Positions 35,253-51,831 of a stretch of DNA of 64,000 nucleotides are shown in pieces. The stretch's first letter is position 1, and each line of letters starts with the position of its first letter. Made by a program: the position numbers and the translations under genes. The notes under the pieces were generated by a model, which worked only from the letters and a program-made list of their open reading frames with translations, was not told where the DNA came from and did no database searches. This DNA comes from Undibacterium hunanense (lineage in GTDB: Bacteria; Pseudomonadota; Gammaproteobacteria; Burkholderiales; Burkholderiaceae_D): positions 62,001 through 126,000 of the forward strand of contig NZ_JACOGF010000009.1 of the NCBI RefSeq assembly GCF_014284335.1, in the 5' to 3' direction.

Positions 35253-35903
35253 CTAAAAAGCTGCTTCACAGACCAGGCGACATTTTGCAAGGTCAAATTG
35301 ATTATTGCTGCGCACGCTGGATTCCATGTCCAGCCAGTATGGTGTGCCAGGTGTGATGACCAGTGTCTGCAAAACATCCCGGATGGATGTCGGGCCAATG
35401 CCGCCAGAGAAGCCGCAGAAAGGGTGGGCGCCTTGCAACGGTGGCCATACGGACGGTTTGATGCCATTTCCAAAAGACACATCATAGAGCCAGTCTACCC
35501 TGCCATCGTCAGGGAAAACGCCCTGGGATTGCAATGCAGGGCGCACACCATGGCGCACGCCAAACAAATAGCAGTTTTGAATTTCCTGCTCGCTGCTGCC
35601 AGCACGGCCATGATTAATCTGTACACGGGAATATCCCGAGAAATCAAACCCGGAATCTCTGCCTTCGGCAATCGCCTGTGCCAGCTCACCGCAGACATGG
35701 GCGGAGAGACGCAGGCCGCTGCGTTGCATCGCCTGGCGGGTTTTGTGATCTGGAAATAGAGGAATTCCTTGTCGTGCGGGATCAATGAGTATGCCCCATT
35801 CAACTGAATATTGACTGGACAGTGCTTGCATCCCGGGTATCAGATCCATGCTGTCTGCGCCGGTAAATGTAATAAAGACGGGGGAGGAGGGGGAGGTAGG
35901 CAT
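35253..35903 (-). CDS. TrpF-like TIM-barrel protein in the nucleoside locus
   Basis: About 216 residues from ATG 35903. FITFTGADSMDLIPGMQALS and VEWGILIDPARQGIP, then RVQINHG, and near the end CGFSGGIGPTSIRDVLQTL and WLDMESSVR, recall phosphoribosylanthranilate isomerase (TrpF), including the phosphate-binding glycine turn and the final D-x-S-S region. The catalytic Cys of TrpF is not present at the N-terminus, so the reaction probably differs. A longer frame from 35993 would include the operator at 35934, so 35903 is preferred. It is divergent from the first TonB receptor across two operator copies, which places it in the GntR regulon. Confidence 0.65.
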   Translation of the reverse strand: MPTSPSSPVFITFTGADSMDLIPGMQALSSQYSVEWGILIDPARQGIPLFPDHKTRQAMQRSGLRLSAHVCGELAQAIAEGRDSGFDFSGYSRVQINHGRAGSSEQEIQNCYLFGVRHGVRPALQSQGVFPDDGRVDWLYDVSFGNGIKPSVWPPLQGAHPFCGFSGGIGPTSIRDVLQTLVITPGTPYWLDMESSVRSNNQFDLAKCRLVCEAAF

Positions 35904-35933
35904 GGCATAAAGTATTGATTGATGATTTTTATA

Positions 35934-35945
35934 TGGTACGTACCA
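35934..35945. promoter_or_regulatory. GntR operator candidate, copy 1 (TrpF-like gene)
   Basis: TGGTACGTACCA, a perfect 12-bp palindrome. On the minus strand it is followed directly by TATAAA (35933-35928), a -10 box, and the TrpF-like ATG is 31 bases from the site. Repressor bound here would cover the -10/-35 spacer. Confidence 0.75.
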
Positions 35946-36070
35946 ACAATGATTTTTGTCAAGAAAAATAGATGTGCTGATAATGGTAGTCAATACGAAT
36001 GTAATTTCATTCTATGTAAATTCTAAATTTCGTAGAAAAAACAACAGAATATGCATTGTTAACTATTAAT

Positions 36071-36082
36071 TGGTACATACCA
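36071..36082. promoter_or_regulatory. GntR operator candidate, copy 2 (first TonB receptor)
   Basis: TGGTACATACCA, one change from the perfect palindrome, 61 bases before the receptor start. A TATTAT-like -10 follows a few bases downstream (near 36086). The stretch between this site and copy 1 is AT-rich and non-coding. Confidence 0.75.
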
Positions 36083-36142
36083 GTGTATTATTAATTGGCG
36101 TGATCGAATGTGGGATTTCAACAATTGCTCAAGGGGAATGTT

Positions 36143-38416
36143 ATGCAAAATCATATTGATAAAAAAAGCATGCTTGCGTATGGCTTCGTGCTTGTACTGT
36201 CCGGGAAGTTGGTCGAAGCAAGCGCGCAAGATGCAGTTGCGACTGGTTCGGCAGTCGCTGCACCAGCGGTGAAGTTGCAGTCGGTTACTGTGACGGCAGA
36301 GCGCAGGGAAGAAAATATCAAGAATGTCCCGGTATCTGCATCCATAGTGGCCGATGAGCAACTGGCTGTTCTCAACTCTGGTGGCCAGGATATGCAAATG
36401 CTCGCCGGCAGGGTACCCAGCTTAAATGTGGAATCTTCATTTGGACGTTCTTTTCCACGCTTCTACATTCGTGGTTATGGCAACGTGGATTTTCATCAAA
36501 ACGCTTCTCAGCCGGTGTCACTGATCTATGATGATGTGGTACAGGAAAGTCCGGTGTTGAAAGGTTTTCCCGCATTTGATCTGGAACGTGTTGAAGTGCT
36601 GAGGGGACCTCAAGGCTCATTGTTTGGACGAAATACGCCTGCCGGCGTAGTCAAATTCGATTCGGTTCAACCTGCACCTAATCGTAATGCTTACGTTTCC
36701 ATTTCTGATGCTACGCACAATACGGCTAATTTGGAGGCGGCCATGAACCTGCCCGTAGGGACTGACCTGGCGGCCAGGCTTTCCATATTGCACCAGCATC
36801 GCGATAACTGGATTGACAATTCATATACAGGGGAGCAAAACCGATACGGAGGATATGATGACAGTGCCATGCGCTTTCAGTTGCTATACAAGCCAAATGC
36901 CGATTTCAGTGCGCTTGCCAACATCCACGCACGGACGCTGAACGGTAGCGCGTCTTTGTTTCGTGCCAATATCATTCAGCCGCGCAGCAATGCGCTTGTC
37001 CCCAACTTTGATATCGGCAGCCTGGCCACTGATGGGGGGAATGGACAGCATCTGGAAAATTACGGTGGCAGCCTGAAACTAAAGTGGCGGTTCGGGGATA
37101 TGAGTCTTCATTCGATAACAGGCTACGAAACGGTGCGCGTATTCAGTCGCGGGGATATTGATGGCGGCTATGGTGCTGCGTTTACGCCGGTTTCGGGTCC
37201 GGGGTTGATTCCATTCCCGGTTGAATCTGCGGATGGAACATCTGGTCACCATCAATTTACCCAGGAATTTCGCCTTGAATCCAGTCCAAATGCAGGGCTC
37301 AAATGGCAAACCGGTCTGTTCTATTTTGACGAAAAATACCAGATAGATAGTTATAGCTATGATTCCTTGTCCGCTGGTGTGCTGACCAGCGACGTACGCT
37401 CACATCAAAAAAATGATGCCTGGGGAGTATTCGGTTCGCTTAATTATGATGTCAGCGATTGTTTCAATCTGCGTGCCGGTTTACGTTACACGCGAGACCG
37501 GAAGTATTTGATGACAGAGGCATCGAATAAACCGGATGGCAGCTCGGATATTGACCGGTCTGCCGGGCTGGCAGCGAGTAATACTGTTTCCAAGTTTAAC
37601 TGGGATGTCAGTGGAGTTTATAAATTGTCTGACACAGCCAATCTGTATTCGCGTGTTGCAACTGGTTTTCGTGGGGCAACGATTCAACCTGCGGGATCTT
37701 TTAACCCGATGTCCGTGGCGCAACCTGAAACCATTACTTCTGTTGAAGCCGGATTCAAGGCCGACTTGTTCCAGCGCCGGGCGCGTTTAAATGCGGACAT
37801 CTATGCTTACAATGTGAAGGGATTGCAATTAACGGCAGTAGGGGGCACATCAAATTCTGCAATCTTGCTGAATTCAAAAAAGAGTGTTGGCCGTGGTGTT
37901 GAAATGGATTTTGAAGCGTATTTGACAGATGACCTGCTCATGACCCTGGGCGGTAGTTATAACTTCACACGAATAGACGATGCTGCCCTGGCAGTAGGTG
38001 TATGTCGCTCTTGTACTGTGCTCAATCCTACCTATGTAAGCGCAGGTGGCAGCACGCTGGCGCTTATCGATGGCAATCCTTTGCCGCAGGCACCGAAATG
38101 GGCTGCCAACTTTACACTGCGCTATAGCGTGCCGTATCGGAACGGGGAGTTTTTTGCCTATACTGACTGGGTCTATCGCAGCCAGGTCAATTTCACACTA
38201 TACAAATCGACGGAGTTCTCTGGCAAGCCGCTCCTGACTGGTGGCCTGCGTCTTGGTTACAAATGGAATGGCGACCGATACGAGCTGGCCATGTTTGGAC
38301 GTAATATCACGAATCGGGTCCAAATTGTTGGCGGTATTGACTTTAACAACCTGACCGGTTTCGTCAATGATTACAATCCGCGCATAATTGGCTTGCAATT
38401 CACTTCGCGGTTTTGA
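36143..38416 (+). CDS. TonB-dependent outer-membrane receptor 1 of the nucleoside locus
   Basis: 757 residues. Signal peptide ending VEASAQ; TonB-box region LQSVTVTAERREENIKNVPV; plug with LERVEVLRGPQGSLFGRNTPAG; then a barrel ending in FTSRF with terminal Phe. This belongs to the Fec/Cir-like TonB receptors that import bulky substrates. AAGGGGAA supports ATG 36143 over the upstream GTG at 36110. It precedes a PfkB kinase gene and is controlled by a palindrome shared with the second receptor, so I expect an organic ligand such as a nucleotide or glycoside instead of iron. Confidence 0.93.
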   Translation: MQNHIDKKSMLAYGFVLVLSGKLVEASAQDAVATGSAVAAPAVKLQSVTVTAERREENIKNVPVSASIVADEQLAVLNSGGQDMQMLAGRVPSLNVESSFGRSFPRFYIRGYGNVDFHQNASQPVSLIYDDVVQESPVLKGFPAFDLERVEVLRGPQGSLFGRNTPAGVVKFDSVQPAPNRNAYVSISDATHNTANLEAAMNLPVGTDLAARLSILHQHRDNWIDNSYTGEQNRYGGYDDSAMRFQLLYKPNADFSALANIHARTLNGSASLFRANIIQPRSNALVPNFDIGSLATDGGNGQHLENYGGSLKLKWRFGDMSLHSITGYETVRVFSRGDIDGGYGAAFTPVSGPGLIPFPVESADGTSGHHQFTQEFRLESSPNAGLKWQTGLFYFDEKYQIDSYSYDSLSAGVLTSDVRSHQKNDAWGVFGSLNYDVSDCFNLRAGLRYTRDRKYLMTEASNKPDGSSDIDRSAGLAASNTVSKFNWDVSGVYKLSDTANLYSRVATGFRGATIQPAGSFNPMSVAQPETITSVEAGFKADLFQRRARLNADIYAYNVKGLQLTAVGGTSNSAILLNSKKSVGRGVEMDFEAYLTDDLLMTLGGSYNFTRIDDAALAVGVCRSCTVLNPTYVSAGGSTLALIDGNPLPQAPKWAANFTLRYSVPYRNGEFFAYTDWVYRSQVNFTLYKSTEFSGKPLLTGGLRLGYKWNGDRYELAMFGRNITNRVQIVGGIDFNNLTGFVNDYNPRIIGLQFTSRF

Positions 38417-38496
38417 CCGCATATGAAATTTTATGAGGGACAGTGGGCCCTTTTGCCAATAGACGTAGCGAACGCGGTTTAAGCAAGGAGAGTCAA

Positions 38497-39435
38497 ATGC
38501 TGGAAAAAATGGGATTAGCGTCGCCTCGTCGGTGGGATATGTTGGCTTTTGGCGATCCCAATGTCGACCTGGTTTTTGCCGTTGATTATGCGCCTGGTGC
38601 GGATCAGAAGGTATTGGGCCGTCGGCTCGGACAATTTGCCGGTGGTACGGTGGCGAATGTGGCCTGCGCAGCAAGCAATCTGGGTTTGCCGACGCAGGTT
38701 TATGGTCGTGTTGGTGATGACAGTGAAGGGGTATTGCTGACGCGAGAATTTTCCCGTTTCGGTGTCGGGTTTGAGCAACTGAAGAAGATTCCGGATACCG
38801 CCTCTTCAATGGCGATTATCATGGTGGAGAGCAGTGGTGAAAAAGCTCTTATCTATTCACCGATGCAGGGCACTGTACCGCTGGGATCGTCTTTTCTTCA
38901 GGCCCTGACGCAAAGCCGCTTACTGTATGCCATGCCTTACGACATGGAAGAATTTAGCCTTGTCCACGGTCTGGCGCGCGAGGCCGGGGTCATCGTTGCC
39001 ATTGATGTCGAAGCGGTCATGATTACTGACCTGGCACATATGCGCAGGCTCATGGCGATGTGCGATATCGTATTCATGAATGAAGCGACCTATCTGAGCA
39101 TTTTCAATGAAGCGCCGCAGTTGAAGGCGATGCAGGAGAGGCTCCATTCCAGACAACAGATACTGGTGGTCACGCGCGGTTCTCATGGCGCAATGGCGGT
39201 TAGTGGTGATGTCGGGGTTGATGTGCCCGCATTTCATACAACGGTGATTGACACTACTGGCGCGGGGGACTGTTTTAATGGGGCTTTTCTGGTGGCCTTG
39301 TTTGATGGTCTGTCACTGGCAGCATCCTTGCGATTTGCTTGTGCTGCAGGCAGCTTTGCGCTGGAAGCGACAGGGGCGCGTTCTGCTTTGCCTACCAGGG
39401 CACAGGTAGACGCCAGGCTCGCCTTATACGCGTAA
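38497..39435 (+). CDS. PfkB-family carbohydrate or nucleoside kinase
   Basis: 312 residues from ATG 38497 (AAGGAG seven bases upstream; the frame is open to 38443). PfkB signature 1 appears as FAGGTVANVACAASNLGL and signature 2 as DTTGAGDCFNGAFLVALF, with the catalytic aspartate in GAGD. Ribokinase, nucleoside kinases and pseudouridine kinase all belong here; the substrate cannot be assigned. Encoded 80 bases after the TonB receptor and ahead of the convergent GntR gene. It could trap ribose or an imported riboside by phosphorylation. Confidence 0.92.
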   Translation: MLEKMGLASPRRWDMLAFGDPNVDLVFAVDYAPGADQKVLGRRLGQFAGGTVANVACAASNLGLPTQVYGRVGDDSEGVLLTREFSRFGVGFEQLKKIPDTASSMAIIMVESSGEKALIYSPMQGTVPLGSSFLQALTQSRLLYAMPYDMEEFSLVHGLAREAGVIVAIDVEAVMITDLAHMRRLMAMCDIVFMNEATYLSIFNEAPQLKAMQERLHSRQQILVVTRGSHGAMAVSGDVGVDVPAFHTTVIDTTGAGDCFNGAFLVALFDGLSLAASLRFACAAGSFALEATGARSALPTRAQVDARLALYA

Positions 39436-39487
39436 TAATCCGGCGCGGTTTTTCAGTACCCCTGCATGTCACGTTGCAGGGCTATCA

Positions 39488-39529: not shown

Positions 39530-39531
39530 TC

Positions 39532-40314
39532 TTAGCCATTACTCCATTTGTTGATGCGCGTCTTGTAGCGATACGATGGGACATACTTCATTTCGCAATA
39601 TTCTATCGGTTCACGCCTGTCTGACAGCATGACACGTTCACACACCAGCAGAGGGGTGCCAGGTCCGACGCCCAGCAAGAGCGCATCATCCGCAGAGGCG
39701 GCAATGGCGCCGACGCTCTCAAGGCTTTCTGACGGCTCGATAGAAAACTTGTCGATCAGCAGACGATACAGCGAACCGGCCCGCTCAAGCTCTTTACGCT
39801 CCAGCCGCGCACCCTGGGGAAGATGCAGATAAGAATCCTGCAAGCCTACCACCGCGTCATCCATCAGGCGCAAACGTCTGATGCGCATTAAGGGCACATG
39901 CGCCTCTACATGCAGCAGGCTGGCAATCGCCATATTGGCTGCGACGTTTTCCATGGAGAGGATTTTCTGGCCAGGCGTGCCGCCGCGTTTGAGTGTGTCT
40001 TCTGAAAAACTGTCCAGGAAGCGGGACATCTGGCGCACGGCAGCAGGGGCTGCGAAAGTGCCTCGTCCGTGATCGCTGTACAGGACGCCGCGTTCTTCCA
40101 GCAGACGGATAGCTTTTCTGACGGTATCCCGGCTTACTTTAAAGCTGATGGCAAGATCTCTTTCGGCGGGCAGGGGTTCATTCGGCGCAATTTTCCCGGA
40201 CTCCATATGTAGCTGCAAAGTTTCGGCCAGTTGTCGGTACAGAGGGGCGGACGATTTTTCGACCGGATTCTGGTTGGTCGGGATGGTCTCGCTACTTTGT
40301 CTCTTGGTACGCAT
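39532..40314 (-). CDS. GntR-family transcriptional regulator with UTRA domain (HutC type)
   Basis: 260 residues from ATG 40314; an ATG at 40395 (287 residues) is also in frame but lacks a ribosome site, whereas AAGGAA precedes 40314. The winged helix reads PLYRQLAETLQLHMESGKI, PLPAERDLAISFKVSRDTVR and LYSDHGRGTFAAP. The UTRA effector domain follows (VPLMRIRRLRLMDDAVVGLQ; LLVCERVMLSDRREPIEYCE). HutC-type repressors release DNA on binding a small metabolite. Six TGGTACGTACCA-like palindromes in the surrounding promoters, one in front of this gene, are its probable operators. Confidence 0.93.
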   Translation of the reverse strand: MRTKRQSSETIPTNQNPVEKSSAPLYRQLAETLQLHMESGKIAPNEPLPAERDLAISFKVSRDTVRKAIRLLEERGVLYSDHGRGTFAAPAAVRQMSRFLDSFSEDTLKRGGTPGQKILSMENVAANMAIASLLHVEAHVPLMRIRRLRLMDDAVVGLQDSYLHLPQGARLERKELERAGSLYRLLIDKFSIEPSESLESVGAIAASADDALLLGVGPGTPLLVCERVMLSDRREPIEYCEMKYVPSYRYKTRINKWSNG

Positions 40315-40447
40315 GGTTTCGTCTATTCCTTTAAAAAGCACATTTCCTGATTTGGACGCTTTCGCCTTCGTATCGATGTCCGCTGCATCTTGCATGTCAA
40401 TGAATGGGCTTGAGCTTACAGATATCTGGTCGCATCAGTTGTATGTA

Positions 40448-40459
40448 AGGTGCATACCA
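40448..40459. promoter_or_regulatory. GntR operator candidate, copy 3 (autoregulation)
   Basis: AGGTGCATACCA, two changes from the palindrome. It lies before the GntR gene and, read leftward, is followed by TACATA, a -10-like box, so it may mediate autoregulation. Confidence 0.5.
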
Positions 40460-40522
40460 ATTTTTACACATTTCAGAAGTAATTGACATATTTTCTATGG
40501 AATAAGCACGATTTTCGTGCAT

Positions 40523-40627: not shown

Positions 40628-40639
40628 AGGTACGTACCA
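40628..40639. promoter_or_regulatory. GntR operator candidate, copy 5
   Basis: AGGTACGTACCA, one change from the palindrome. TATAAA (40641-40646) follows after one base on the plus strand, the same geometry as copies 1 and 6. Confidence 0.7.
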
Positions 40640-40776
40640 GTATAAAATATTTATACTAATTAAGGTGTGGTATTTTTAAATTATTCTTTCAAGGAAAACG
40701 TTATAAACCATTAAATATAAGGGTTAATGGGCGAATTGAGGAAATTGGAAAGAAATTTTAAATTTCTATTGATTAG

Positions 40777-40788
40777 TGGTACATACCA
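40777..40788. promoter_or_regulatory. GntR operator candidate, copy 6 (second TonB receptor)
   Basis: TGGTACATACCA, identical to copy 2, followed after one base by TATAAA (40790-40795). The receptor start is 110 bases downstream, giving a leader of about 95 bases. Confidence 0.75.
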
Positions 40789-40897: not shown

Positions 40898-43378
40898 ATG
40901 TATCGTAGGATAGGAATGTTTGCAGCAGGAACGGTGGTGGCGTTTCAGTGGGGTGGTGCAGCCAGTGCGCAAGAGGCTGCCACTGCGGCTGCTGCTGTGT
41001 CGGCGGAAAATCCGGTTACCGTTGTCGAGGTCACCGGTAAAGTGCTGGGTAAAGGCGAGGCCCGGGCGAATAGCGTTATCGATAAAGAGACGATACAGCA
41101 ACAACCTGCGGGTCTTGATCCGCTCAAGTTACTGACCCGGGTGCCGGGTTTGCAAGTAGGGTCAAGTGATGCGTTGACAGGCAGCTTTTCAATGCGGCTG
41201 TCCATGCGTGGACTGAACAAAGAACAGATCGGTATATCAATCGATGGCATTCCTAACGGTTCGACCTTGTCGAATGGTGGAACCATGCCAAACCGTCTGA
41301 TGGATACGGCAAATATTTCCAGAGTCGATGTTTCTCAGACTGCCGGTGATCTTGGTACACCTTCCAATCAGGCCCTGGGTGGCTATATCGATTTCAGAAC
41401 ACGTGATCCCAGCAAGGAGCGTGGTGGTGATGCCGAGATATCGATCGGTGATTATGGCTATCAAAGGGCGTTTGTCCGTTACGACACTGGCCGGTTTGAT
41501 AATGGGATCAGCGCCTATGGCGACTTTTCGCATGAATATGTAAGAACCTGGCCAGGGGATCAGTCAGGCCGCAGCAAGCGCGATCATGCCGATATTCGTG
41601 TCCTGAAAGATCTGGGCAATGGTTCCAGTGTGCGCGCCACAGTCAGCTACAACAAAATGGCTGACAATGATTATGATGCCGTGGCATTGCGTGCTGTCAG
41701 TGCACCATTCTATAAATCAAATTTTGAAACCAATTCTGGCACGGATGGTTTGACTGATTACTGGACCGGCAATCCGGCTATCGATCAAAATTACCGTGGA
41801 ACACGCGGTATCGCGAGTACCGAAGTATTTTCCCACATTGACTGGATTCAAAAACTGGGTGATGCAAGCAAGCTCACAATCAAACCCTATTTCCATCATC
41901 AGGAAGGCGATGGATGGTTCTATGTTCCTTATAAACAGAGGCCGACCAATGGTAGCGTCTACAGTGCCGTGGCACCTGGCGGTTCGCCTGTGTCTACCGT
42001 GCAGGAATGTTATGCGAATCAATACCAGACATCTGCATCGGGCGGCTTGATCCCGACAGCTAGTGTGGTACTGACTGCGGATGCCAGCGCCAGGCTTCTG
42101 GCTGGTGCTTGTCCGGCGGCGGCTAAATATGCCATGAACCCAGTCAGTCAATGGGGCGCACGCGAGGCGACCACCCGGCGCGGTGGCTATGAAATGGATA
42201 GAAAAGGTACGCTTGCAGAATTGGCTACCAACCTCGATAGCGGTCACTCGCTCAGGGTAGGTGGCTGGTACGAACATATCAGCCGTGCAAAAACACGTAA
42301 CTGGTATCAGACCACAGACCCAACCGTCAGTTCGGCATACTCTGACAGTAATTTATATTCGATTACGCAAGATCGTCACTACAATTCCAATGCAGGAATG
42401 ATGTATGCGCAAGACAAGATGAATTTGCTGGATGATCGTTTCGAGCTGGATGTCGGTGCGACTTACCAGCGTTTCAGTGAAACTTACAGCTCGCCTGTCG
42501 AGTTTAATGGTGAACGCCAGTTGTCGGTTTCTTCAGGTATTTTGCCGAAAATTGCCGCGCTGTACAGGATCAATGACGATTGGGAATTCTTTGTCAGTGG
42601 TTCAAAAAACTTCAGTGCAATTCCCGATAGTGTTTTTGAAGGCACGGCAGCAGTCGATGCGAAGAATGGTATCAAACCAGAAACCTCGATTAATAAGGAT
42701 GCCGGTATTCGCTGGCTGAAAGGCCCCTACGGGCTGGGTATGACAGTCTATGCGATTGATTATCGTGACCGCATTTCCATCCAGAATGGCAATCCTAACG
42801 GGGACATTTTTTCTCGCGATGCAAAAACAACATTCCAGAATCTGGGTGGCATTAGTTCACGCGGCGTTGAACTGACTGCGCGTGCCAGTTTTGAACATCT
42901 GGAACTGTATGCCAATTATGCGTTCAATGACGCGCACTATGTAGAAGATACAGTGGCGGAAGGGATCAAGGCTGGTGACCCCGTACTGGGCGCAGCGCGG
43001 CATAATGCCTTTGCCGAAGTGACATGGAAATCATCTGCCGGCTGGCGTTTGACTGCCAATGCCAAGTATGTTGGCAAAGCAGCCGGTACCTACAATGTCG
43101 TCGCAAATACGGTAGTTAAAGGCGGCCCTGATTTCTATCCCAGAGAGTACATGCCCAATTACACCCTGATTGGTCTTTCTGGCAGCTATCGCCTGAATGG
43201 AAGTTTCCTGGGGGCCTTCACCAAAACAGAGCTCGCTTTCAATATCGACAATCTGTTTAACAAACAATATCTTGCCGGTGTGGGGTCTGAGCTGACAACG
43301 TCCAATCCTTTGACATCAGGACGATATTTTCTGGGTAGCCCGAGAACGCTGTTCGTAACGATGCGTACTCATTTTTGA
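40898..43378 (+). CDS. TonB-dependent outer-membrane receptor 2 of the nucleoside locus
   Basis: 826 residues. Signal peptide ending GAASAQ, a TonB-box-like VTVVEVTGK, plug domain with IDGIPNGSTLSNGGTMPNRL and VDVSQTAGDLGTPSNQALGG, and a barrel ending VTMRTHF. It differs clearly from receptor 1 in sequence and is longer. It heads the genes for the nucleoside binding protein and ABC importer (gap of 238 bases, so possibly a second promoter), making it the likely outer-membrane gate for their substrate. Start chosen from the GGGGGG ribosome site. Confidence 0.93.
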   Translation: MYRRIGMFAAGTVVAFQWGGAASAQEAATAAAAVSAENPVTVVEVTGKVLGKGEARANSVIDKETIQQQPAGLDPLKLLTRVPGLQVGSSDALTGSFSMRLSMRGLNKEQIGISIDGIPNGSTLSNGGTMPNRLMDTANISRVDVSQTAGDLGTPSNQALGGYIDFRTRDPSKERGGDAEISIGDYGYQRAFVRYDTGRFDNGISAYGDFSHEYVRTWPGDQSGRSKRDHADIRVLKDLGNGSSVRATVSYNKMADNDYDAVALRAVSAPFYKSNFETNSGTDGLTDYWTGNPAIDQNYRGTRGIASTEVFSHIDWIQKLGDASKLTIKPYFHHQEGDGWFYVPYKQRPTNGSVYSAVAPGGSPVSTVQECYANQYQTSASGGLIPTASVVLTADASARLLAGACPAAAKYAMNPVSQWGAREATTRRGGYEMDRKGTLAELATNLDSGHSLRVGGWYEHISRAKTRNWYQTTDPTVSSAYSDSNLYSITQDRHYNSNAGMMYAQDKMNLLDDRFELDVGATYQRFSETYSSPVEFNGERQLSVSSGILPKIAALYRINDDWEFFVSGSKNFSAIPDSVFEGTAAVDAKNGIKPETSINKDAGIRWLKGPYGLGMTVYAIDYRDRISIQNGNPNGDIFSRDAKTTFQNLGGISSRGVELTARASFEHLELYANYAFNDAHYVEDTVAEGIKAGDPVLGAARHNAFAEVTWKSSAGWRLTANAKYVGKAAGTYNVVANTVVKGGPDFYPREYMPNYTLIGLSGSYRLNGSFLGAFTKTELAFNIDNLFNKQYLAGVGSELTTSNPLTSGRYFLGSPRTLFVTMRTHF

Positions 43379-43616
43379 GTTTCTGGACTGAACTTTTAGT
43401 CTGAATTGTTAGCTTGGACTGTTGCGTAGAAATTCTCTGGCAGAGGATGAGGGAAATGTCAGGGCGTGGTACTCAATCGCTAGTGTTTTCCCAAAAGATT
43501 GGGGTACCACGCACTGTGCCGCCGGGGGCAACCGGCAGCACATCGCCAAAAAGCAACATGAAATGTTGTATGAATGTACGATACAAAAATCACAGGCATA
43601 TTGAAGGATTCCGGCA

Positions 43617-44744
43617 ATGCGGATAGTCAAAGAATTCTTTTTTCAGGTGGCATGCTTTGCTGCAATTATGGCATTGCTCTACCTGTTACTTGCTGTGACA
43701 GCGCGTACTGATATCCGCAAGCCAGGCAATGCGCAACTGCGGGTTGCCTTGTTCATCAACGGAACACTGGGGGATAAATCCTTCTTTGATTCGGCGGCAC
43801 ATGGCATGGACCAGGCCAGGAAAACATTGCCCGTATTTGCCAAGATCATTGAAGGTGGTGTTGACCCTACACGTTGGGAAGCCGCGTTGACGGATCTGGC
43901 CGACAGCGGAGAATATGACCTGATTATTACCGGCACATTTGCCATGGTGCCTTATGTACAAAAGCTTGCCGAAGAATTTCCAGAAAATCATTTCATGGTA
44001 TTTGATGCCGCAGTGGATTACCAGAAGTGCCGCTGCAAAAATGTCCATTCCATGCTTTTCAGACAGAACGAAGGCGCTTATCTTGCCGGCTTTCTTGCTC
44101 AAAAGCTGATGCAGAATGGCTTGCCGGATGTTGTTCCTGGCAGTGGTCTGGGAGTGATAGGCGGCATGCAGATTTCTGTCATAGAAGATTTTTTCACCGG
44201 ATTTCGTGCGGGTGCAAAAGCCGCATCGTCAGATGCGCAGATTTTGAGTCAGTTCGCCAATTCTTTTTCTGACCCCGCCGCAGGCAAGGATATCGCCAAA
44301 GCGCAATATGCGCGCGGTGTGGGGCTTATTTTTCATGCAGCGGGTGCAACCGGGCAGGGCGTCAATGAGGCTGCGGCAGAGGCGCGTCGCTATGCAATCG
44401 GTGTGGACATAGATCAATATGCCTTATACCGGGTATCTAATCCGCAACGCGCAGCGCGGATAGTGACATCCGTCATCAAGAACGTGGATGTCGGTATTTT
44501 ACGTGCGGTACAGCAGCAACTGGCAGGCAGCCTGGCATATGGACAGATTGAATCGCTCGGTCTGGCTGAAGGCGGTGTGCGTCTGGTGCGCGATTCAGAC
44601 GTCATGGCGAAGGTGCCTGCGGAAGTGCTGAAAAGTCTTAATGAAACAGAACGTGCCGTGATTGAAAAACGTGTCCAGGTTCCTGGTGTTTTTACACAAA
44701 TGCCCATTGCGAGCGGCGACGCATCCGTAAAGAGCAAGCCCTGA
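43617..44744 (+). CDS. BMP/PnrA-family nucleoside-binding protein with N-terminal membrane anchor
   Basis: 375 residues. Residues 8-28 form one hydrophobic helix (FQVACFAAIMALLYLLLAVT) with no lipobox and no clear cleavage site, so the protein is probably anchored to the inner membrane. The BMP domain follows: LRVALFINGTLGDKSFFDSA, DLIITGTFAMVPYVQKLAEE, MLFRQNEGAYLAGFLAQKLM and GVIGGMQISVIEDFFTGFRA. BMP proteins are purine-nucleoside receptors of ABC importers. The next genes encode exactly such an importer. AAGGA precedes ATG 43617. Confidence 0.93.
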   Translation: MRIVKEFFFQVACFAAIMALLYLLLAVTARTDIRKPGNAQLRVALFINGTLGDKSFFDSAAHGMDQARKTLPVFAKIIEGGVDPTRWEAALTDLADSGEYDLIITGTFAMVPYVQKLAEEFPENHFMVFDAAVDYQKCRCKNVHSMLFRQNEGAYLAGFLAQKLMQNGLPDVVPGSGLGVIGGMQISVIEDFFTGFRAGAKAASSDAQILSQFANSFSDPAAGKDIAKAQYARGVGLIFHAAGATGQGVNEAAAEARRYAIGVDIDQYALYRVSNPQRAARIVTSVIKNVDVGILRAVQQQLAGSLAYGQIESLGLAEGGVRLVRDSDVMAKVPAEVLKSLNETERAVIEKRVQVPGVFTQMPIASGDASVKSKP

Positions 44745-44760
44745 TGCCATAGAGCAGACC

Positions 44761-46365
44761 ATGCAAACTGATTACCCTGACAACAAGCTGCCTTACATCC
44801 TGGAACTGACCTGCGTATCGAAGCAATACGCTAACGGTATTCTGGCTAATGACAGAGTCAGTTTTGGTATCCGGCGCGGCGATATCCATGCGATTGTCGG
44901 CGAAAACGGTGCCGGAAAATCTACGTTGATGAAGTTGATTTATGGTCTTGAGCAGCCGGATGCAGGGAATATCCTGTTCGAAAGCAGGCAATTGCAATTC
45001 CGTACACCACGCGATGCGATCGCTGCTGGGATCGGTTTGGTTCCACAGCATCTTAAATTGGTGCCATCGTTTTCAGTTGCGAGAAATATCGTGTTGGGTC
45101 GTGAACCCATGCGTGGCCTGCTGGTTGACGATGACAGAGCGATTGCCGATGTGCGTGCAGTTTCGGCCAGGTTTGGGCTGGAGGTAGATCCTTTGGCGAC
45201 AGTCGCAGATCTGTCGCTGGGTGAGCAACAAAAGGTTGAAATACTGAAAGCTTTGTATCGTGGTGCCCGTCTGTTGCTGCTGGATGAGCCGTCCGCAGTG
45301 CTGACACCGCAAGAGGCAGGTGCGCTGTTCACCGCACTGCGCAAGCTGGTTGAGCTGGGTCTGACGGTCGTGATCATCACCCACAAGCTCTCAGAGGTGC
45401 GCGAGGTGTCTGACCGTTATACCGTACTGCGTGGCGGAAAAGTCGTGGGCCTGGGCGATGCCAAAACCGTCAGTGAAGTTGAACTGACTGAACTGATCGT
45501 AGGCAAGACATTGACACCGTTGCAGATTCAAAGAAGCAGCAGAGATGCGCTTGATCCATTGGTAAGCGTAAGCAATCTCAGCGTGGTTCGTGATGACGGG
45601 CGACATGTCTTGCAGAATATATCGTTCGATATCGCACCGGGAGAAATACTGGGTATTGCCGGCATCGAAGGCAATGGCCAATCCTTCCTGGCCGAAGTTT
45701 TGTGTGGATCGCGCCAGCCTTCCGGAGGGCATGCCAGCATAGGCGGGCAGGTTTATACAGGACAGGGTGTGCGTTCAGCACGTTCTCACAGGGTCGCCAA
45801 CATACCAGAAGACCGGCTGCATGATGGTGTTGCCGCAGACATGAGTATTGCAGAAAATGTCATGGCGGTTGATTACCATAAACGGCCTTTTTCCAGATTT
45901 GGAAGCCTGAACAGAGCGAGCATCCGGAATTTCGCCAGCCAGCTCATTCATTACTACGGTGTCGCCGCCGGGTCGGCAGATACCATCATTGGTGCCCTGT
46001 CAGGCGGCAATATGCAGAAACTGGTTTTTGCACGGGAAGTCGCCACGAAACCGCTGTTTTTGATCGCCTGCCAGCCCACGCGTGGAGTCGACATTGGTGC
46101 CAGTGACATGCTCCGGAAGTACCTGATCGAATTGCGCGATCAGGGAGCATCCATATTATTGATCTCTGCTGAACTGGATGAAATCCTTGCGCTCTCCGAC
46201 CGTATTGCGGTGCTGGCGCAGGGGCAGATCGTCGGTCAATTTACCGGTGGACAGGTAAGCGCAAATGAATTGGGACTGTATATGACAGGAGCAAAACGCC
46301 AGTCAGGAGCCGACGCCGGTTTGGATGTGAACTCGGGTGTAGAAAGTGTTGAGGTGTTGGCATGA
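44761..46365 (+). CDS. Nucleoside-type ABC importer, double ATPase subunit
   Basis: 534 residues with two ABC domains. The first has Walker A GENGAGKSTLMKLIYG near 44, signature LSLGEQQKVEILKAL and Walker B LLLLDEPSAVL. The second has a degenerate Walker A (GIEGNGQSFLAE, lysine replaced by glutamine) but an intact signature LSGGNMQKLVFAREV, the usual asymmetry of sugar and nucleoside ATPases. Encoded 16 bases after the binding protein and overlapping the first permease by four bases. Confidence 0.95.
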   Translation: MQTDYPDNKLPYILELTCVSKQYANGILANDRVSFGIRRGDIHAIVGENGAGKSTLMKLIYGLEQPDAGNILFESRQLQFRTPRDAIAAGIGLVPQHLKLVPSFSVARNIVLGREPMRGLLVDDDRAIADVRAVSARFGLEVDPLATVADLSLGEQQKVEILKALYRGARLLLLDEPSAVLTPQEAGALFTALRKLVELGLTVVIITHKLSEVREVSDRYTVLRGGKVVGLGDAKTVSEVELTELIVGKTLTPLQIQRSSRDALDPLVSVSNLSVVRDDGRHVLQNISFDIAPGEILGIAGIEGNGQSFLAEVLCGSRQPSGGHASIGGQVYTGQGVRSARSHRVANIPEDRLHDGVAADMSIAENVMAVDYHKRPFSRFGSLNRASIRNFASQLIHYYGVAAGSADTIIGALSGGNMQKLVFAREVATKPLFLIACQPTRGVDIGASDMLRKYLIELRDQGASILLISAELDEILALSDRIAVLAQGQIVGQFTGGQVSANELGLYMTGAKRQSGADAGLDVNSGVESVEVLA

Positions 46366-47534
46366 CGGACATCATCACAAGTAATGTCTCACCCTCGATG
46401 GCAAGGCATGTCGATCTGGTCTGGCAACAGCGTCTGCGTTTGTTTTTCGCCGTGTTTTGTGCTTTGCTGATTGGCTTCCTGGTGACTGCCACGGTCAGCA
46501 AAGAACCTGTTCGCGCCTACCTGACCATGCTTACAGGGCCACTGCCTGAAATCCGCTGGAGCGATCTGCATGGATGGCAATTGCGACGCATGGTGCGTTT
46601 TGGTTCTGTCATTGAAGATACCATTACGCTGAGCTTTCTCGGTCTTGCCGTTGCCATTCCATTCCGGGCGCGTCAGTTTTCACTGGGTGCAGATGGACAA
46701 TTGTTTTTGTCGGCACTGGCTGCGGCGGCGGTCAGTCTTTATCTGGGCGATGGATTCCCTTTTCTTTTGCCCATCGTTTTTGTAGCGGCCATTCTGACCG
46801 GCTTCACCTGGGGCCTGCTACCCGGGGTATTGAAAGCGCGTTACCAGGTCAACGAGATTGTGAGCACGCTCATGCTCAATCTGATCGCCGTGCAATTGTA
46901 TCGCCTGATCATCTCTGAATACATGCGTGACCCCGGGGCCGGTTTTCTGGTAACGCCAGTGTTGCCTTCTTCTGCCATCTTTTCGGGTCTGATAGCGCAT
47001 ACCAATGTCAGCACCATGTTGTACCTGCTGCCCTTTGTCGTATTCGCAGCCTGGTATTTGTTGATGCGTACAACGACAGGTTATGAAATACGTACCGTTG
47101 GTTCTGCCCCTGCTTTTGCCCGCCGGGTGGGTATGCCGGTAACGCGCTCCATCATTCTTTCGATGGCGTTCGGTGGTGCGTTTGCTGCATTCGCGGGCCT
47201 GCACATCAGCAACGGACTTTTGAAGCGGCTACCGGTTGAATTGTCGCCGGGGCTGGGCTTTGATGGATTGGTCGTGTCCTTGCTGGCGCGTAATGACCCG
47301 AAGGCAATTCCAATGGCAGCATTTTTCTATGCCTATCTTCGTACCGGTGCCCAAGCGATGGAACGCACGACCGATGTGTCACGCGAAGTAGTGCAGATCG
47401 TCCAGGCCCTGATCATTCTGTTCGTTGTTGCCGAACACCTGATACCGGCAGGCTTTTCTGCCAGGCTGAGACAATCCTGGAATTCCTTTCTGCAAAAATT
47501 CAATTACATCCATCGTTTGAAGGGCCAGAAATGA
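46362..47534 (+). CDS. Nucleoside-type ABC permease 1
   Basis: 390 residues, about nine helices, with the family stretch DTITLSFLGLAVAIPFRARQFSLGADGQLF and later GFDGLVVSLLARNDPKAIPM, as in YufP/NupB-type permeases. A hydrophilic insert near 65-85 (PLPEIRWSDLHGWQLRRMV) is larger than I expect for the family. Overlaps genes on both sides by four bases. Confidence 0.94.
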   Translation: MTDIITSNVSPSMARHVDLVWQQRLRLFFAVFCALLIGFLVTATVSKEPVRAYLTMLTGPLPEIRWSDLHGWQLRRMVRFGSVIEDTITLSFLGLAVAIPFRARQFSLGADGQLFLSALAAAAVSLYLGDGFPFLLPIVFVAAILTGFTWGLLPGVLKARYQVNEIVSTLMLNLIAVQLYRLIISEYMRDPGAGFLVTPVLPSSAIFSGLIAHTNVSTMLYLLPFVVFAAWYLLMRTTTGYEIRTVGSAPAFARRVGMPVTRSIILSMAFGGAFAAFAGLHISNGLLKRLPVELSPGLGFDGLVVSLLARNDPKAIPMAAFFYAYLRTGAQAMERTTDVSREVVQIVQALIILFVVAEHLIPAGFSARLRQSWNSFLQKFNYIHRLKGQK

Positions 47535-48499: not shown

Positions 48500-48514
48500 G
48501 AGGATAAAAATAAA

Positions 48515-49588
48515 ATGAAGGAGCAATTTTTGAACAAACTGATATTCCAGGACCGGATTCTGGCTTCGCTGCTATTGGCAGGTATGGGTGATGCACTGGG
48601 TGCGCCGACTGAACAGTGGACCATAGAAGAGATTTTTAAAAAATATGGCGGACTTGTGCTTGATTTCGACATTCCGCCTGAAGATACTTTTGCGGGCGCA
48701 AATGCCGGTAAGCGCGGAGAAGTCACTGACGATGCCAGCCAGATGTATTACCTGGCGCGTGCAATGATAGCGGCTGATGGCGCGCTGGATCAGGCCGACT
48801 GGGTTGCATGCCTGCTGGACTGGGCAAGCAATAGTCCCAAGGCCAGTTTCATGGGACCAAGTACTGCCGGTATAGTCAAAGCGCTGCAAGAGGGAAGCGA
48901 TACCGCATTGGTCGGGGTGATTGGCACTTCCCGCCGCAAGATGACATCTGTCGGTACCACCAATGGGGCGGCAATGCGGGTTGCGCCAGCTGGTTTGATA
49001 TACCCTGGAAATATCGATGCGGCATGTCGTCAGGCTTTGATTACCTGTCTTCCATCCCATGACACGAATGTCGCCATTTCTGCTGCCTGTTCTGTCGCAG
49101 CAGCAGTGTCGCAGGCGCTGGTATCAAACAATCTCCATGATGTGATCAACGGCGCGATAGAGGGGGCACATATTGGTGAACAGCTTGCCAGTGAACATGC
49201 GCGCATAGTCGCTGGTCCACAATATATAGCGCGACTTGAGATGGCTTTGAGCATCGCAGCAGAGGCGACAAACGATTATTCCTTCCTGACCCGAATGGAG
49301 CGCATGGTTGGCAATTCAGTGCTGGCGGCAGAGTCAGTTCCAGCCGCCCTTGGTGTCGTCGCTTATTCCAAAGGCGATGCGTTGCGCACGATAGCCCTGA
49401 GTGCATCGATAGGTAACGATACCGATTCCATCGCTACCATGGCCGGGTCTATTGTCGGTGCGCTGGTTGGTACTGAAAAGCTGCCTCAGAATCTGATCCA
49501 GGAATTCAAGCAGGCGAATAAGGCCGATTTTGATCTTGACAAGTTGGCGCTGGCTTTGGCTGCGATTGCTGGTCGCAATCATGGATAG
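48515..49588 (+). CDS. ADP-ribosylglycohydrolase (DraG/ARH) family hydrolase
   Basis: 357 residues. The family's metal-binding motifs are intact: GDALGAPTE at 25-33, EVTDDAS at 69-75 and GNDTDSIATMAG at 300-311. These enzymes cut N-glycosidic bonds to ADP-ribose or, in metabolic relatives, to other ribosides. Inside an importer operon and ahead of a nucleoside hydrolase, a catabolic role on an imported riboside is more likely than removal of protein ADP-ribose. GAGGA lies ten bases before ATG 48515. Confidence 0.93.
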   Translation: MKEQFLNKLIFQDRILASLLLAGMGDALGAPTEQWTIEEIFKKYGGLVLDFDIPPEDTFAGANAGKRGEVTDDASQMYYLARAMIAADGALDQADWVACLLDWASNSPKASFMGPSTAGIVKALQEGSDTALVGVIGTSRRKMTSVGTTNGAAMRVAPAGLIYPGNIDAACRQALITCLPSHDTNVAISAACSVAAAVSQALVSNNLHDVINGAIEGAHIGEQLASEHARIVAGPQYIARLEMALSIAAEATNDYSFLTRMERMVGNSVLAAESVPAALGVVAYSKGDALRTIALSASIGNDTDSIATMAGSIVGALVGTEKLPQNLIQEFKQANKADFDLDKLALALAAIAGRNHG

Positions 49589-49624
49589 AAGTATTGTTGC
49601 CAGTAACTCTGGGCAGTGAACATC

Positions 49625-50536
49625 ATGAAAAAAATCATTATTGACTGCGACCCAGGCATTGACGACGCGCTGGCTTTGCTTTTGGCGGCTTCCAGCGATC
49701 AGCTGGATCTGCTTGCAGTGACCACGGTTGCAGGTAATCGCCCGGTAGCAATTACTGCAAGGAATGCACGCCGGATACTGGATGCCGCTGGAAAAATGCA
49801 TGTACCTGTGTATGCAGGTGCAGCCTTGCCACTGGGCTATGCAGAAGCCCGCTGCAATCTGGTGCATGGTGAAGATGGCCTGGGTGGAGTTGTATTTGGG
49901 GCGGACAGGTCAGTCCAGACTGGTCATGCAGCAAATCGCCTGATTGAACTGCTGCTGGAACATGAAGAGGGAAGCATAACGCTGGTAGCGATAGGTCCGC
50001 TGACCAACCTGGCACTGGCAGAACGCCTGTCGCCTGGCATTTTAAAGCGGGCAAGGCAGTTACTCATCATGGGTGGCGCACTGCGATGTCCTGGCAACGT
50101 AACGCCTGCAGCGGAATTCAATTTTTATGCAGATCCGGTTGCTGCAGAAATTGTCATCACGGCGGAAGCCAGTCTTGTACTGTTTCCTCTGGATGTGACA
50201 CATCAGGTGGTCATGTCACCAGAGTGGATACAGTCGTTTTCAACTATTGACACGCATTGTGGCCAGCTGGCTGCCGACATGCTGGAAGCTTATGCAAAAC
50301 TGGACCCGCTGCTCCACGATGCCTGTCCGGTCGCGTATTTATTGGACAGCAGCTTGTTTGGCGGTGAATCATGTGCTGTAACGATAGATTGCCGCCCTGG
50401 TCCTACCGAAGGTTATGCCATGTCCTGGTTTGGTTCCCAGATTGATGGGCGCAAGGAAAATGTATGGGCAATTACAAAGGTCCATGATGAAGCCTTGCTG
50501 ACGCTGGTGCGTTCTTCCATCAACATGCTTTCCTGA
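49625..50536 (+). CDS. Nucleoside hydrolase (IunH family)
   Basis: 303 residues from ATG 49625. The calcium and ribose site is seen in IIIDCDPGIDDALALLLA at the N-terminus, NVTPAAEFNFYADPVAA in the middle and the late HDACPVAYLL with its conserved Asp. These enzymes hydrolyse nucleosides to base plus ribose. An upstream in-frame GTG (49616) is possible. Together with the preceding DraG-family enzyme it gives the locus two different N-glycosidases. Confidence 0.95.
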   Translation: MKKIIIDCDPGIDDALALLLAASSDQLDLLAVTTVAGNRPVAITARNARRILDAAGKMHVPVYAGAALPLGYAEARCNLVHGEDGLGGVVFGADRSVQTGHAANRLIELLLEHEEGSITLVAIGPLTNLALAERLSPGILKRARQLLIMGGALRCPGNVTPAAEFNFYADPVAAEIVITAEASLVLFPLDVTHQVVMSPEWIQSFSTIDTHCGQLAADMLEAYAKLDPLLHDACPVAYLLDSSLFGGESCAVTIDCRPGPTEGYAMSWFGSQIDGRKENVWAITKVHDEALLTLVRSSINMLS

Positions 50537-50595
50537 TGTCATTGAGAGAAGTTTAAATGTTTTCAATTAGATGTAATCAGTGCTGAGGAAATAAT

Positions 50596-51831
50596 ATGAC
50601 TGCATTGGCAAAATTATCTGGACGGACTATATCCATGGCATCTGCAATTCAAAGCATCAAGTCACTGGTGACGCTGTGCATGCTTGTGTTGATCTCTGCT
50701 TGCGTTAGCGACAGTACTGTAGGCAAAGTAGCGAACACAGAGGTGAATAAGACAAGGGAAAACACAGTGCAACATACTGTGGGCAGTCTTCGTTTCATTG
50801 GTGAACAGCGCATTCCTTTAAAAGCAATCTATGCTGATACCGTGGTCGGTGGGCTTTCTGGAATTGACTACGATGCACGTACAGAAACATGGATTCTGGA
50901 AAGTGATGACAGGTCAGAATATAGCCCCGCACGTTTTTATACTGCCACACTGAATTATGACCAGCATGCCTTTACCTCAGTGACACTGACTGGCGTGCAT
51001 TTTTTTAAACAGTCCAACGGAAAAAACTATCCGGATGCGAAGCTGTTTGAAAAAGAAGGTGGTGAGGTAGCAGACATAGAATCGATACGCTTCGATCCCC
51101 TGGATGACAGTATCTGGTATGCCAGCGAAGGCAGCCGGAAATTGGGACTTAATCCATTCATCAGACAGGCGAAGCGGGATGGCAGTTACCTGTCCACCTT
51201 ACCCACGCCTGCGATGTTGAATGTTTCACCCAATGAAGAAACCGGATCACGGAATAATTTGAGTTTCGAAGGACTGAGTTTTTCTCCGGATGGTAAATAT
51301 CTCTGGCTGGGCATGGAAACAGCCATATATCAGGATGGACCGGTTGCCACAGTCGATAAAGGGGCGGTCAGTCGCATTACACGTTTTGACCGCAAGGGTA
51401 AGGTGTTTGAACAATATGCCTATCCACTTGATCCAATTCAGGTGGCAGCTGCACCTGGCCGGTTCAGTGATAACGGTTTGTCAGAAGTGCTTGCTGTCAA
51501 TGAGCATCAACTGCTGGTACTGGAACGTTCCGGCGTTCAGGACGCAACAGGTGTTTTCAAATTTTATATTCGTCTGTATGAAATGGATATTCATGGGGCA
51601 ACAGACATCAAGGATATTGCCTCGTTGAAGAAAGCAAAGTATGTACCTGTTCAAAAAAGATTGGTCTTGAATTTGAATGAAGCTGGTTTGCCAAAAATCG
51701 ACAATATAGAAGGAATTGCGTGGGGACATAAATTGCCCAACGGCCATGACACCATTGTGCTTGTATCGGATGATAATTTCGATCAGACCCAGGTGACACA
51801 ACTGCTGGTTTTTGAGGTACTACCAAAATAA
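50596..51831 (+). CDS. Phytase/esterase-like lipoprotein (PF13449 type)
   Basis: 411 residues. An N-terminal signal ends in LISACVS, a lipobox, though the signal is preceded by about 24 unusual residues. The domain shows GGLSGIDYDARTETWILESDDRS, DIESIRFDPLDDSIWYASEG and NLSFEGLSFSPDGKYLWLGME, matching the esterase-like/phytase beta-propeller family. It follows the nucleoside hydrolase by 59 bases and may act on phosphorylated or esterified nucleosides before uptake; this is inference from position. AGGAAAT precedes the start. Confidence 0.85.
   Translation: MTALAKLSGRTISMASAIQSIKSLVTLCMLVLISACVSDSTVGKVANTEVNKTRENTVQHTVGSLRFIGEQRIPLKAIYADTVVGGLSGIDYDARTETWILESDDRSEYSPARFYTATLNYDQHAFTSVTLTGVHFFKQSNGKNYPDAKLFEKEGGEVADIESIRFDPLDDSIWYASEGSRKLGLNPFIRQAKRDGSYLSTLPTPAMLNVSPNEETGSRNNLSFEGLSFSPDGKYLWLGMETAIYQDGPVATVDKGAVSRITRFDRKGKVFEQYAYPLDPIQVAAAPGRFSDNGLSEVLAVNEHQLLVLERSGVQDATGVFKFYIRLYEMDIHGATDIKDIASLKKAKYVPVQKRLVLNLNEAGLPKIDNIEGIAWGHKLPNGHDTIVLVSDDNFDQTQVTQLLVFEVLPK

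What the first reader, a model, noticed from the sequence alone, without database searches (positions are those of the whole stretch)
35253..51831. GntR-controlled locus for uptake and cleavage of an unknown ribosylated compound
Seen: two distinct TonB receptors, a BMP nucleoside-binding protein, a complete nucleoside-type ABC importer, two different N-glycosidase families (DraG/ARH and IunH), a PfkB kinase, a TrpF-like TIM barrel, a phytase/esterase-like lipoprotein and a GntR/UTRA repressor, with shared operators. Known: BMP/ABC systems import purine nucleosides, IunH splits nucleosides, and DraG-family enzymes split ADP-ribosyl bonds. Inference: the cell takes a large ribosylated molecule through the outer membrane and degrades it. 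A TrpF-like enzyme, whose family rearranges N-phosphoribosyl amines, hints that the substrate may be an unusual N-riboside or NAD/ADP-ribose breakdown product, not plain adenosine. I know of no described pathway combining all these parts.
Basis: partly seen in the sequence, partly recalled or inferred. Interest (0 to 1): 0.8.

Follow-up and report, generated by a model that had tools for sequence, protein, structure and literature searches.

The report
Rare regulated purine-riboside scavenging locus
A bacterium carries a rare, repressor-controlled gene set that most likely pulls a purine-and-ribose-containing molecule through its outer membrane and takes it apart, using one enzyme of a little-known family that resembles a tryptophan-synthesis enzyme and is otherwise seen mainly in phages.

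Summary
The named genes are intact, and the locus looks like one regulon: four GGTACRTACC palindromes in 64 kb against 0.04 expected; 4 of 6 strict genome-wide sites are here; the same operator recurs in 7 of 9 sister loci (Collimonas, Pseudomonas gingeri, others). The gene set does not travel as a block. Among 11 other loci pfkB is present in 10, gntR in 9, a phytase-like gene in 7; DraG and TrpF-like occur together only in the window. Collimonas-type loci lack DraG and the ABC importer; most carry an exported nucleoside-hydrolase-like protein and an adenine/guanine-type permease, which points to a purine nucleoside or conjugate. Yersinia and E. coli versions have DraG, PfkB, GntR and phytase-like genes plus a SIS-domain protein. 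The TrpF-like protein folds like TrpF (pLDDT 93.7), groups amid phage proteins, and adjoins pfkB in 7 of 8 close relatives; the genome has a true TrpF elsewhere. Best reading: TonB-dependent scavenging of a purine ribonucleoside (conjugate), cleavage, phosphorylation of the pentose, then isomerisation by the TrpF-like enzyme. Substrate and isomerase reaction are inferred; an unusual N-riboside is unproven. New variant of a known kind.

The parts
35253..35903 (-). TrpF-like (PRAI-superfamily) beta/alpha-barrel protein, 216 aa; predicted phospho-sugar isomerase
   Evidence: AF2 with 74 rows pLDDT 93.7; Foldseek top PDB hit TrpF 4aaj E 2e-6; 57 of 74 family members match PF00697; the window protein itself does not
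35934..35945 (.). operator TGGTACGTACCA between trpF-like and TonB receptor 1
36071..36082 (.). operator TGGTACATACCA upstream of TonB receptor 1
36143..38416 (+). TonB-dependent receptor 1
   Evidence: PF00593, PF07715; 74% relative behind the same operator in a Collimonas genome (L161)
38497..39435 (+). PfkB-family kinase (ribokinase/sugar kinase type)
   Evidence: PF00294 E 2e-44; best solved relatives sulfofructose kinase and ribokinases
39532..40395 (-). GntR/UTRA (HutC-type) repressor
   Evidence: PF00392, PF07702
40448..40459 (.). operator variant AGGTGCATACCA upstream of gntR
40628..40639 (.). operator AGGTACGTACCA
40777..40788 (.). operator TGGTACATACCA upstream of TonB receptor 2
40898..43378 (+). 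TonB-dependent receptor 2 (ORF opens at 40727; ATG 40898 precedes what reads as a signal peptide)
   Evidence: PF00593, PF07715; start by reading
43617..44744 (+). BMP/PnrA-like substrate-binding protein
   Evidence: PF02608 E 1e-55; PDB relatives include Lbp, TmpC and BmpA/BmpD
44761..46365 (+). ABC ATPase, sugar/nucleoside type with two ATPase domains
   Evidence: PF00005, two stretches
46362..47534 (+). ABC permease 1
   Evidence: PF02653
47531..48499 (+). ABC permease 2
   Evidence: PF02653
48515..49588 (+). ADP-ribosylglycohydrolase-family (DraG/ARH) hydrolase; TDD and DTD motifs intact
   Evidence: PF03747 E 2e-50; T71 D72 D73, D302 T303 D304 invariant in the four aligned proteins
49616..50536 (+). 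inosine-uridine type nucleoside hydrolase with DCDPGIDD motif, no exported N-terminus seen
   Evidence: PF01156 E 4e-85; nearest solved relative an inosine-uridine nucleoside hydrolase, E 2e-55
50596..51831 (+). phytase-like (PF13449) exported lipoprotein
   Evidence: PF13449 E 1e-82; lipobox LISAC read by eye
51839..51879 (.). 13-bp perfect inverted repeat after the last gene, possible terminator hairpin

Best explanation
The locus is a single GntR-repressed, patchily distributed and probably laterally mobile catabolic regulon for TonB-dependent scavenging of a purine ribonucleoside or a larger purine-riboside conjugate. Shown by computation: the gene content, the operator and its conservation across genera, the recurring GntR-PfkB core, and the TrpF fold of the TrpF-like protein. 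Inferred: the substrate crosses the outer membrane through the two TonB receptors; the phytase-like lipoprotein trims it in the periplasm; the BMP/ABC system imports the nucleoside part; DraG and IunH cut glycosidic bonds in the cytosol; the base enters purine salvage; PfkB phosphorylates the released pentose; and the TrpF-like enzyme interconverts the aldose- and ketose-type phosphate (in the enterobacterial loci a SIS-domain protein may stand in its place). Sister loci in Collimonas and P. gingeri would reach the same end by cutting outside the cytosol with an exported IunH-like protein and importing the base through an adenine/guanine-type permease.
For: Operator: four strict sites versus 0.037 expected in 64 kb; 4 of 6 genome-wide strict sites here; the same site or a close variant in 7 of 9 sister loci (L006, L009, L011-L015; not in L010, cut off before trpF-like, nor in L016); also before a distant TonB receptor 1 relative (74% identity) in a Collimonas genome. 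Rarity with linkage: GntR relatives at E 1e-60 or better in 3 of 399 genomes of the order, own included, all three with pfkB and phytase-like genes in the same locus. pfkB adjoins trpF-like in 7 of 8 close relatives. Purine moiety: PF00860 permease by Pfam in L009, L011, L012 and L014; the L012 one has only adenine/guanine permeases AZG1/AZG2 as solved relatives, E 5e-50. Cytosolic IunH + ABC in two loci versus exported IunH-like + permease in others. The genome holds a separate trpF and a second IunH with ABC permeases at C54. TrpF fold.
Against: No substrate is demonstrated. In the window pfkB and trpF-like are not neighbours: trpF-like runs divergently, with TonB receptor 1 between. G068 has the DraG/ABC/IunH version with no TrpF-like relative, so that step is dispensable. 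The sister loci with the permease show no obvious ribose importer although they carry PfkB. Plain ribose 5-phosphate should need no extra isomerase, so either the sugar is not plain ribose or the TrpF-like enzyme does something else. The enterobacterial versions have a KdgM porin and an MFS transporter (GPH type in Yersinia) and no IunH, so their substrate may differ. G068 has 18 strict operator matches genome-wide, only 3 in or near the locus; 13 of the other 15 lie inside listed ORFs, two do not, one of these near another GntR-type gene. The looser pattern is not in clear excess in the own genome (17+6 versus 11+7 for the control). NCBIfam names none of its models for the L009 permease.
Confidence: 0.58

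Rival explanations
1. An ordinary second nucleoside (inosine/adenosine/uridine) uptake operon; the TonB receptors, DraG and TrpF-like genes are accessory or do unrelated jobs.
For: BMP, ABC and canonical IunH suffice for ribonucleosides; G068 lacks TrpF-like.
Against: The genome already has an IunH beside BMP-type permeases at C54; small nucleosides pass porins (established knowledge) and should not need dedicated TonB receptors; TrpF-like, PfkB and TonB receptor 1 recur with the operator in other genera.
Confidence: 0.22
2. The substrate is ADP-ribose-like: NAD, ADP-ribose, or poly(ADP-ribose) / 2'-O-ribosyladenosine fragments. Periplasmic phosphoesterases release a ribosyl-nucleoside and DraG (ARH-like) cuts the extra ribosyl bond before IunH frees the base.
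For: DraG-family enzymes cleave ADP-ribosyl bonds (established for DraG, ARH1, ARH3); TDD/DTD motifs intact; ARH3 among its PDB relatives; the Yersinia version carries a UshA-type 5'-nucleotidase; TonB uptake suits a large molecule.
Against: DraG is absent from every other TrpF-like locus (0 of 8 close relatives); no pyrophosphatase or NAD-processing family among the 12 genes; the nearest PDB relative is MJ1187, filed as hypothetical.
Confidence: 0.18
3. The substrate is an unusual N-riboside (for example of the aminoimidazole riboside type). PfkB phosphorylates the intact riboside and the TrpF-like enzyme performs an Amadori-type rearrangement.
For: A Salmonella operon MFS-kinase-DraG-GntR (kinase annotated as aminoimidazole riboside kinase) matches in gene order STM4065-4067, whose STM4066 has that activity according to PMC3161100 (passage; that the two are the same operon is my inference); pfkB adjoins trpF-like in 7 of 8 close relatives; TrpF fold; the Yersinia SIS protein weakly resembles GlmS, NagB-II and fructoselysine-6-phosphate deglycase, families that handle amino-sugar phosphates.
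Against: The catalytic Cys of TrpF (recalled) is not conserved; two glycosidases would be pointless if the riboside were kept intact; the window PfkB is only 25% identical to the Salmonella kinase.
Confidence: 0.15

Closest known systems
E. coli K-12 yegTUVW (GgaR regulon)
   Same: GntR repressor next to a DraG-family gene, a PfkB kinase and a nucleoside-type transporter (PMC10819704 passages)
   Different: 30% DraG identity, MFS transporter instead of ABC, none of TonB receptor, IunH, phytase-like or TrpF-like in the 16 kb viewed; proposed role in ADP-glucose/glycogen
E. coli accessory island between ygiN and parE, and Yersinia frederiksenii plasmid operon
   Same: GntR, DraG (50% and 52% identity), PfkB and phytase-like protein
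   Different: SIS-domain protein instead of TrpF-like, KdgM porin and MFS symporter instead of TonB receptor and ABC, no IunH; UshA in Yersinia
Salmonella MFS-aminoimidazole riboside kinase-DraG-GntR operon (STM4065-4067 type)
   Same: transporter, PfkB kinase, DraG-family gene and GntR in a row
   Different: 33% DraG identity, MFS transporter, no outer-membrane receptor, IunH or TrpF-like gene in the stretch viewed
Bacteroides thetaiotaomicron ribose utilisation (rus) locus (recalled; one table line seen in PMC10434189)
   Same: outer-membrane TonB receptor, nucleoside hydrolase and ribokinase in one locus
   Different: SusC/SusD pair; no GntR, BMP/ABC or TrpF-like gene known to me
TrpF, phosphoribosylanthranilate isomerase
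   Same: fold and C-terminal region
   Different: window protein fails the Pfam model, lacks the catalytic Cys, and the genome has a true TrpF elsewhere

Membership tests
TrpF / PRAI superfamily (PF00697) | beta/alpha-barrel fold closest to TrpF | tested here: met
   pLDDT 93.7; top PDB match 4aaj TrpF, E 2e-6, TM 0.60
TrpF / PRAI superfamily (PF00697) | match to the curated Pfam model | tested here: inconclusive
   57 of 74 family members match at E 0.01 or better, best 6e-8; the window member does not
TrpF (the enzyme) | catalytic Cys and Asp (recalled residues) | tested here: not met
   KICGLT of true TrpFs reads FITFTGAD here, T14 at the Cys by eye; D141 is invariant in 74 rows but hhalign pairs D137 with the invariant TrpF Asp, so the Asp is unsettled
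TrpF (the enzyme) | serves tryptophan synthesis | tested here: not met
   separate strong TrpF at G000:C21, E 3e-40, with a trpB-like gene beside it (read by eye)
ADP-ribosylglycohydrolase family (PF03747) | Pfam model over its whole length | tested here: met
   E 2e-50, profile 2-286 of 287
ADP-ribosylglycohydrolase family (PF03747) | metal-binding TDD and DTD motifs (recalled) | tested here: met
   T71 D72 D73 and D302 T303 D304 invariant in four proteins
DraG proper / Tri1 | NCBIfam equivalog cut-off | tested here: not met
   53 bits versus 337 and 39 versus 490
Inosine-uridine nucleoside hydrolase | Pfam model and DxDPGxDD motif (recalled) | tested here: met
   E 4e-85; DCDPGIDD
BMP/PnrA nucleoside-binding protein | Pfam model | tested here: met
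   E 1e-55
BMP/PnrA nucleoside-binding protein | nucleoside-contacting residues | not tested
   no structure of this protein was modelled
yegTUVW-type operon | GntR + DraG + PfkB + transporter adjacent | tested here: inconclusive
   all four kinds are in the locus, but pfkB and gntR are separated from draG by TonB receptor 2 and the ABC genes
yegTUVW-type operon | MFS nucleoside symporter | tested here: not met
   BMP/ABC instead
Bacteroides rus-type locus | SusD partner of the TonB receptor (recalled; RagB/SusD in the PMC10434189 line) | tested here: not met
   no SusD match among the 12 genes

The most novel reading that the evidence does not exclude
The TrpF-like protein founds a new enzyme family of the PRAI superfamily, widespread in phages, that has been captured into a bacterial catabolic regulon. 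There, paired with a PfkB kinase, it catalyses a previously undescribed isomerisation of a phosphorylated pentose or N-ribosyl compound, completing a new TonB-dependent pathway for a purine-ribosyl conjugate.
Probability: 0.3. Interest if true: 0.75.

Novelty: new variant of a known kind. Interest (0 to 1): 0.5.

Why it matters
DraG-PfkB-GntR operons sit in E. coli, Salmonella and Yersinia without a substrate that I could find agreed in print (searches listed in the report). The sister loci found here, with an exported hydrolase and an adenine/guanine-type permease, narrow the field to purine-riboside-type compounds and give a clean operator for testing. The TrpF-like family, found in 132 viral-contig stretches in one scan, gains its first metabolic context.

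Tried and rejected
Rejected: that TrpF-like is the genome's trpF. Rejected: that all five named enzymes co-occur as a block. Single-sequence AF2 of TrpF-like failed (pLDDT 37.8); the 74-row alignment succeeded. PDB sequence search with the single TrpF-like protein gave only repeat-protein and phycoerythrin chance hits; profile searches gave TrpF only weakly (best E 0.6 and 0.1). PHROGs gave no convincing match for four members. BFVD gave no convincing relative. A DraG scan of viral contigs found no relative; of 398 genomes sampled from the phylum only the own genome matched at 1e-70. Candidate substrates thought of and not tested: cytokinin glycosides, cobalamin-derived ribazole, mushroom nucleosides. 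The Bacteroides rus paper and the aminoimidazole riboside kinase paper are not held; both are recalled or seen through other papers. No tool names the window organism; that it shares the family of Collimonas (Oxalobacteraceae) is my inference from G070 ('same family'), whose TrpF-like protein is nearly that of Collimonas.
Full report
OBSERVATION. The window lies at C108:62001-126000 of a 6.28-Mb assembly. The TrpF-like gene is 35253-35903, 216 aa. TonB receptor 2 probably starts at 40898, so that the operator at 40778 is upstream of it.

OPERATORS. GGTACRTACC stands at 35935, 36072, 40629 and 40778, with a variant at 40449. Shuffles give 0.037 per 64 kb. With flanking A/T bases the strict site occurs six times in the whole genome, four of them here; the other two lie inside listed ORFs. 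The same site, or one with a change in the centre, lies in seven of nine sister loci (L006, L009, L011-L015); it is absent from L010, which is cut off 964 bases before trpF-like, and from L016. In one Collimonas genome it also precedes a distant relative of TonB receptor 1 (74% identity). Against specificity: G068 has 18 strict matches, 3 of them in or near the locus; of the other 15, 13 lie inside listed ORFs and 2 do not. The looser pattern is not in clear excess in the own genome (17+6 versus 11+7 control). The enterobacterial loci L117 and L120 lack this consensus but have palindromes of the form TGGT....ACCA before gntR.

CO-OCCURRENCE. At the thresholds used (1e-40 and 1e-5), the DraG and TrpF-like proteins each have a match in only 2 of 147 related genomes, own included; GntR relatives at 1e-60 occur in 3 of 399 genomes of the order, DraG at 1e-70 in 2 of 399, own included in both. 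A pattern scan of one genome for each of some 85,000 species with TrpF-like gave 42 stretches and 14 relatives. The seven at 50% identity or more are four Collimonas, an Oxalobacteraceae MAG, Pseudomonas gingeri and a Gammaproteobacteria MAG; with G070 (L009) that makes eight close relatives. Of these eight: pfkB adjacent in 7, gntR in 6, phytase-like in 4, an IunH-like gene in 5, DraG in 0, BMP/ABC in 0 (L010 and L012 are short stretches, and L016, 6.3 kb, has none of them). A PF00860 permease was confirmed by Pfam in L009, L011, L012 and L014 and read by eye in L010 and L015; L013 was not checked for it. The only solved relatives of the L012 permease are the adenine/guanine permeases AZG1 and AZG2. 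The seven distant relatives (L017-L023, 36-43%) have none of the other genes; several of their surroundings read by eye as phage-like. On the DraG side, three loci at 50% identity or more were compared (L006, L117, L120): gntR, pfkB and phytase-like in 3 of 3, TrpF-like in 0, BMP/ABC and IunH in 1 (L006), a SIS-domain protein in 2. A fourth record, E. coli H240 (51.8%), was fetched but its genes were not compared. Over all 11 loci: pfkB 10, gntR 9, phytase-like 7. A blastn with the Yersinia draG hits 404 of 5,426 E. coli genomes, covering under 80% of the query in all; two were inspected and carry the same island. So the block is modular, and DraG and TrpF-like occur together only in this window. 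In the window itself pfkB and trpF-like are not adjacent.

TWO LAYOUTS. The window and G068 have BMP/ABC import and a canonical IunH (DCDPGIDD). Collimonas and P. gingeri carry an IunH-family protein with an export-like N-terminus (by eye) in which that motif reads QDAYGPGGTN or similar, beside the permease. Both layouts point to a purine nucleoside or conjugate. The own genome has another IunH beside ABC permeases at C54, so this locus is a second, dedicated system.

TRPF-LIKE PROTEIN. With 74 rows AlphaFold2 gives pLDDT 93.7 and pTM 0.90; the best solved structure is P. furiosus TrpF (E 2e-6, TM 0.60), followed by other barrels such as ribulose-5-phosphate epimerase and TrpA. PF00697 matches 57 of 74 members, not the window protein. 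Profile comparison with true TrpFs of these genomes aligns only the last third (probability 83, E 9e-6), where TrpF binds phosphate (recalled). The TrpF Cys is replaced (by eye). A scan of viral contigs found 132 stretches encoding a relative, 80 kept. In the tree the window protein, the seven other regulon copies and L016 form a set with 100/100 support on a long branch, with phage proteins around it (midpoint root, so direction of transfer is not proven). In L016 the neighbour is a PLP enzyme (PF00291). A role as phospho-sugar isomerase acting after PfkB is inference from adjacency, fold and the SIS protein found with PfkB in enterobacteria.

MECHANISM AND LIMITS. Uptake by TonB receptors, periplasmic trimming, ABC import, cytosolic cleavage, phosphorylation and isomerisation form the best-supported chain; only gene content, operator, linkage and fold are shown. 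The ADP-ribose and N-riboside readings are kept as rivals. That no paper describes this set rests, in a library that lacks most subscription journals. Papers: PMC10819704, PMC3161100, PMC3810377 and PMC10434189 were seen as passages only; the others as search listings; the rus and aminoimidazole riboside kinase originals are recalled.

Noticed in passing
L024-L103 (viral contigs), L017-L023: The TrpF-like family is common in phages (132 relatives in one viral scan); four members gave no useful PHROGs match. Neighbours read by eye as replication and nucleotide-metabolism genes.
   Followed up: partly
L120, L121 (E. coli, between ygiN and parE): An accessory operon MFS-GntR-DraG-SIS-PfkB-phytase-like-KdgM-DUF2608; a draG match occurs in 404 of 5,426 E. 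coli genomes, two inspected.
   Followed up: partly
G000:C54:89500-95000 (L164): A second nucleoside hydrolase next to BMP-type ABC permeases, probably the housekeeping nucleoside system.
   Followed up: partly
L009 11386-12513, L011 7860-8987, L014 15475-16578, L015 7850-8989: IunH-family proteins with an export-like N-terminus whose usual DxDPGxDD motif is replaced by QDAxGPxGxN-like letters; activity uncertain.
   Followed up: no
L016 1734-3905: A TrpF-like gene of the regulon set sits after a PALP-family gene (PF00291) that reads like TrpB, in a Gammaproteobacteria MAG, without pfkB or gntR on the 6.3-kb contig.
   Followed up: no
window 43460-43516: Near-perfect 13-bp inverted arms spaced by 31 bases between TonB receptor 2 and bmp, each holding an operator half-site (GTGGTAC / GTACCAC).
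   Followed up: no
window 51935-53617; L015 3787-5889: A phosphoesterase-family (PF04185) gene flanks the cluster here, and one lies between TonB receptor 1 and gntR in a Collimonas locus; possible exported phosphate-removing step.
   Followed up: partly
G068 genome: Eighteen strict operator-like palindromes, 13 of the 15 outside the locus inside listed ORFs; one of the two others lies shortly before a second GntR-type gene (L152).
   Followed up: partly
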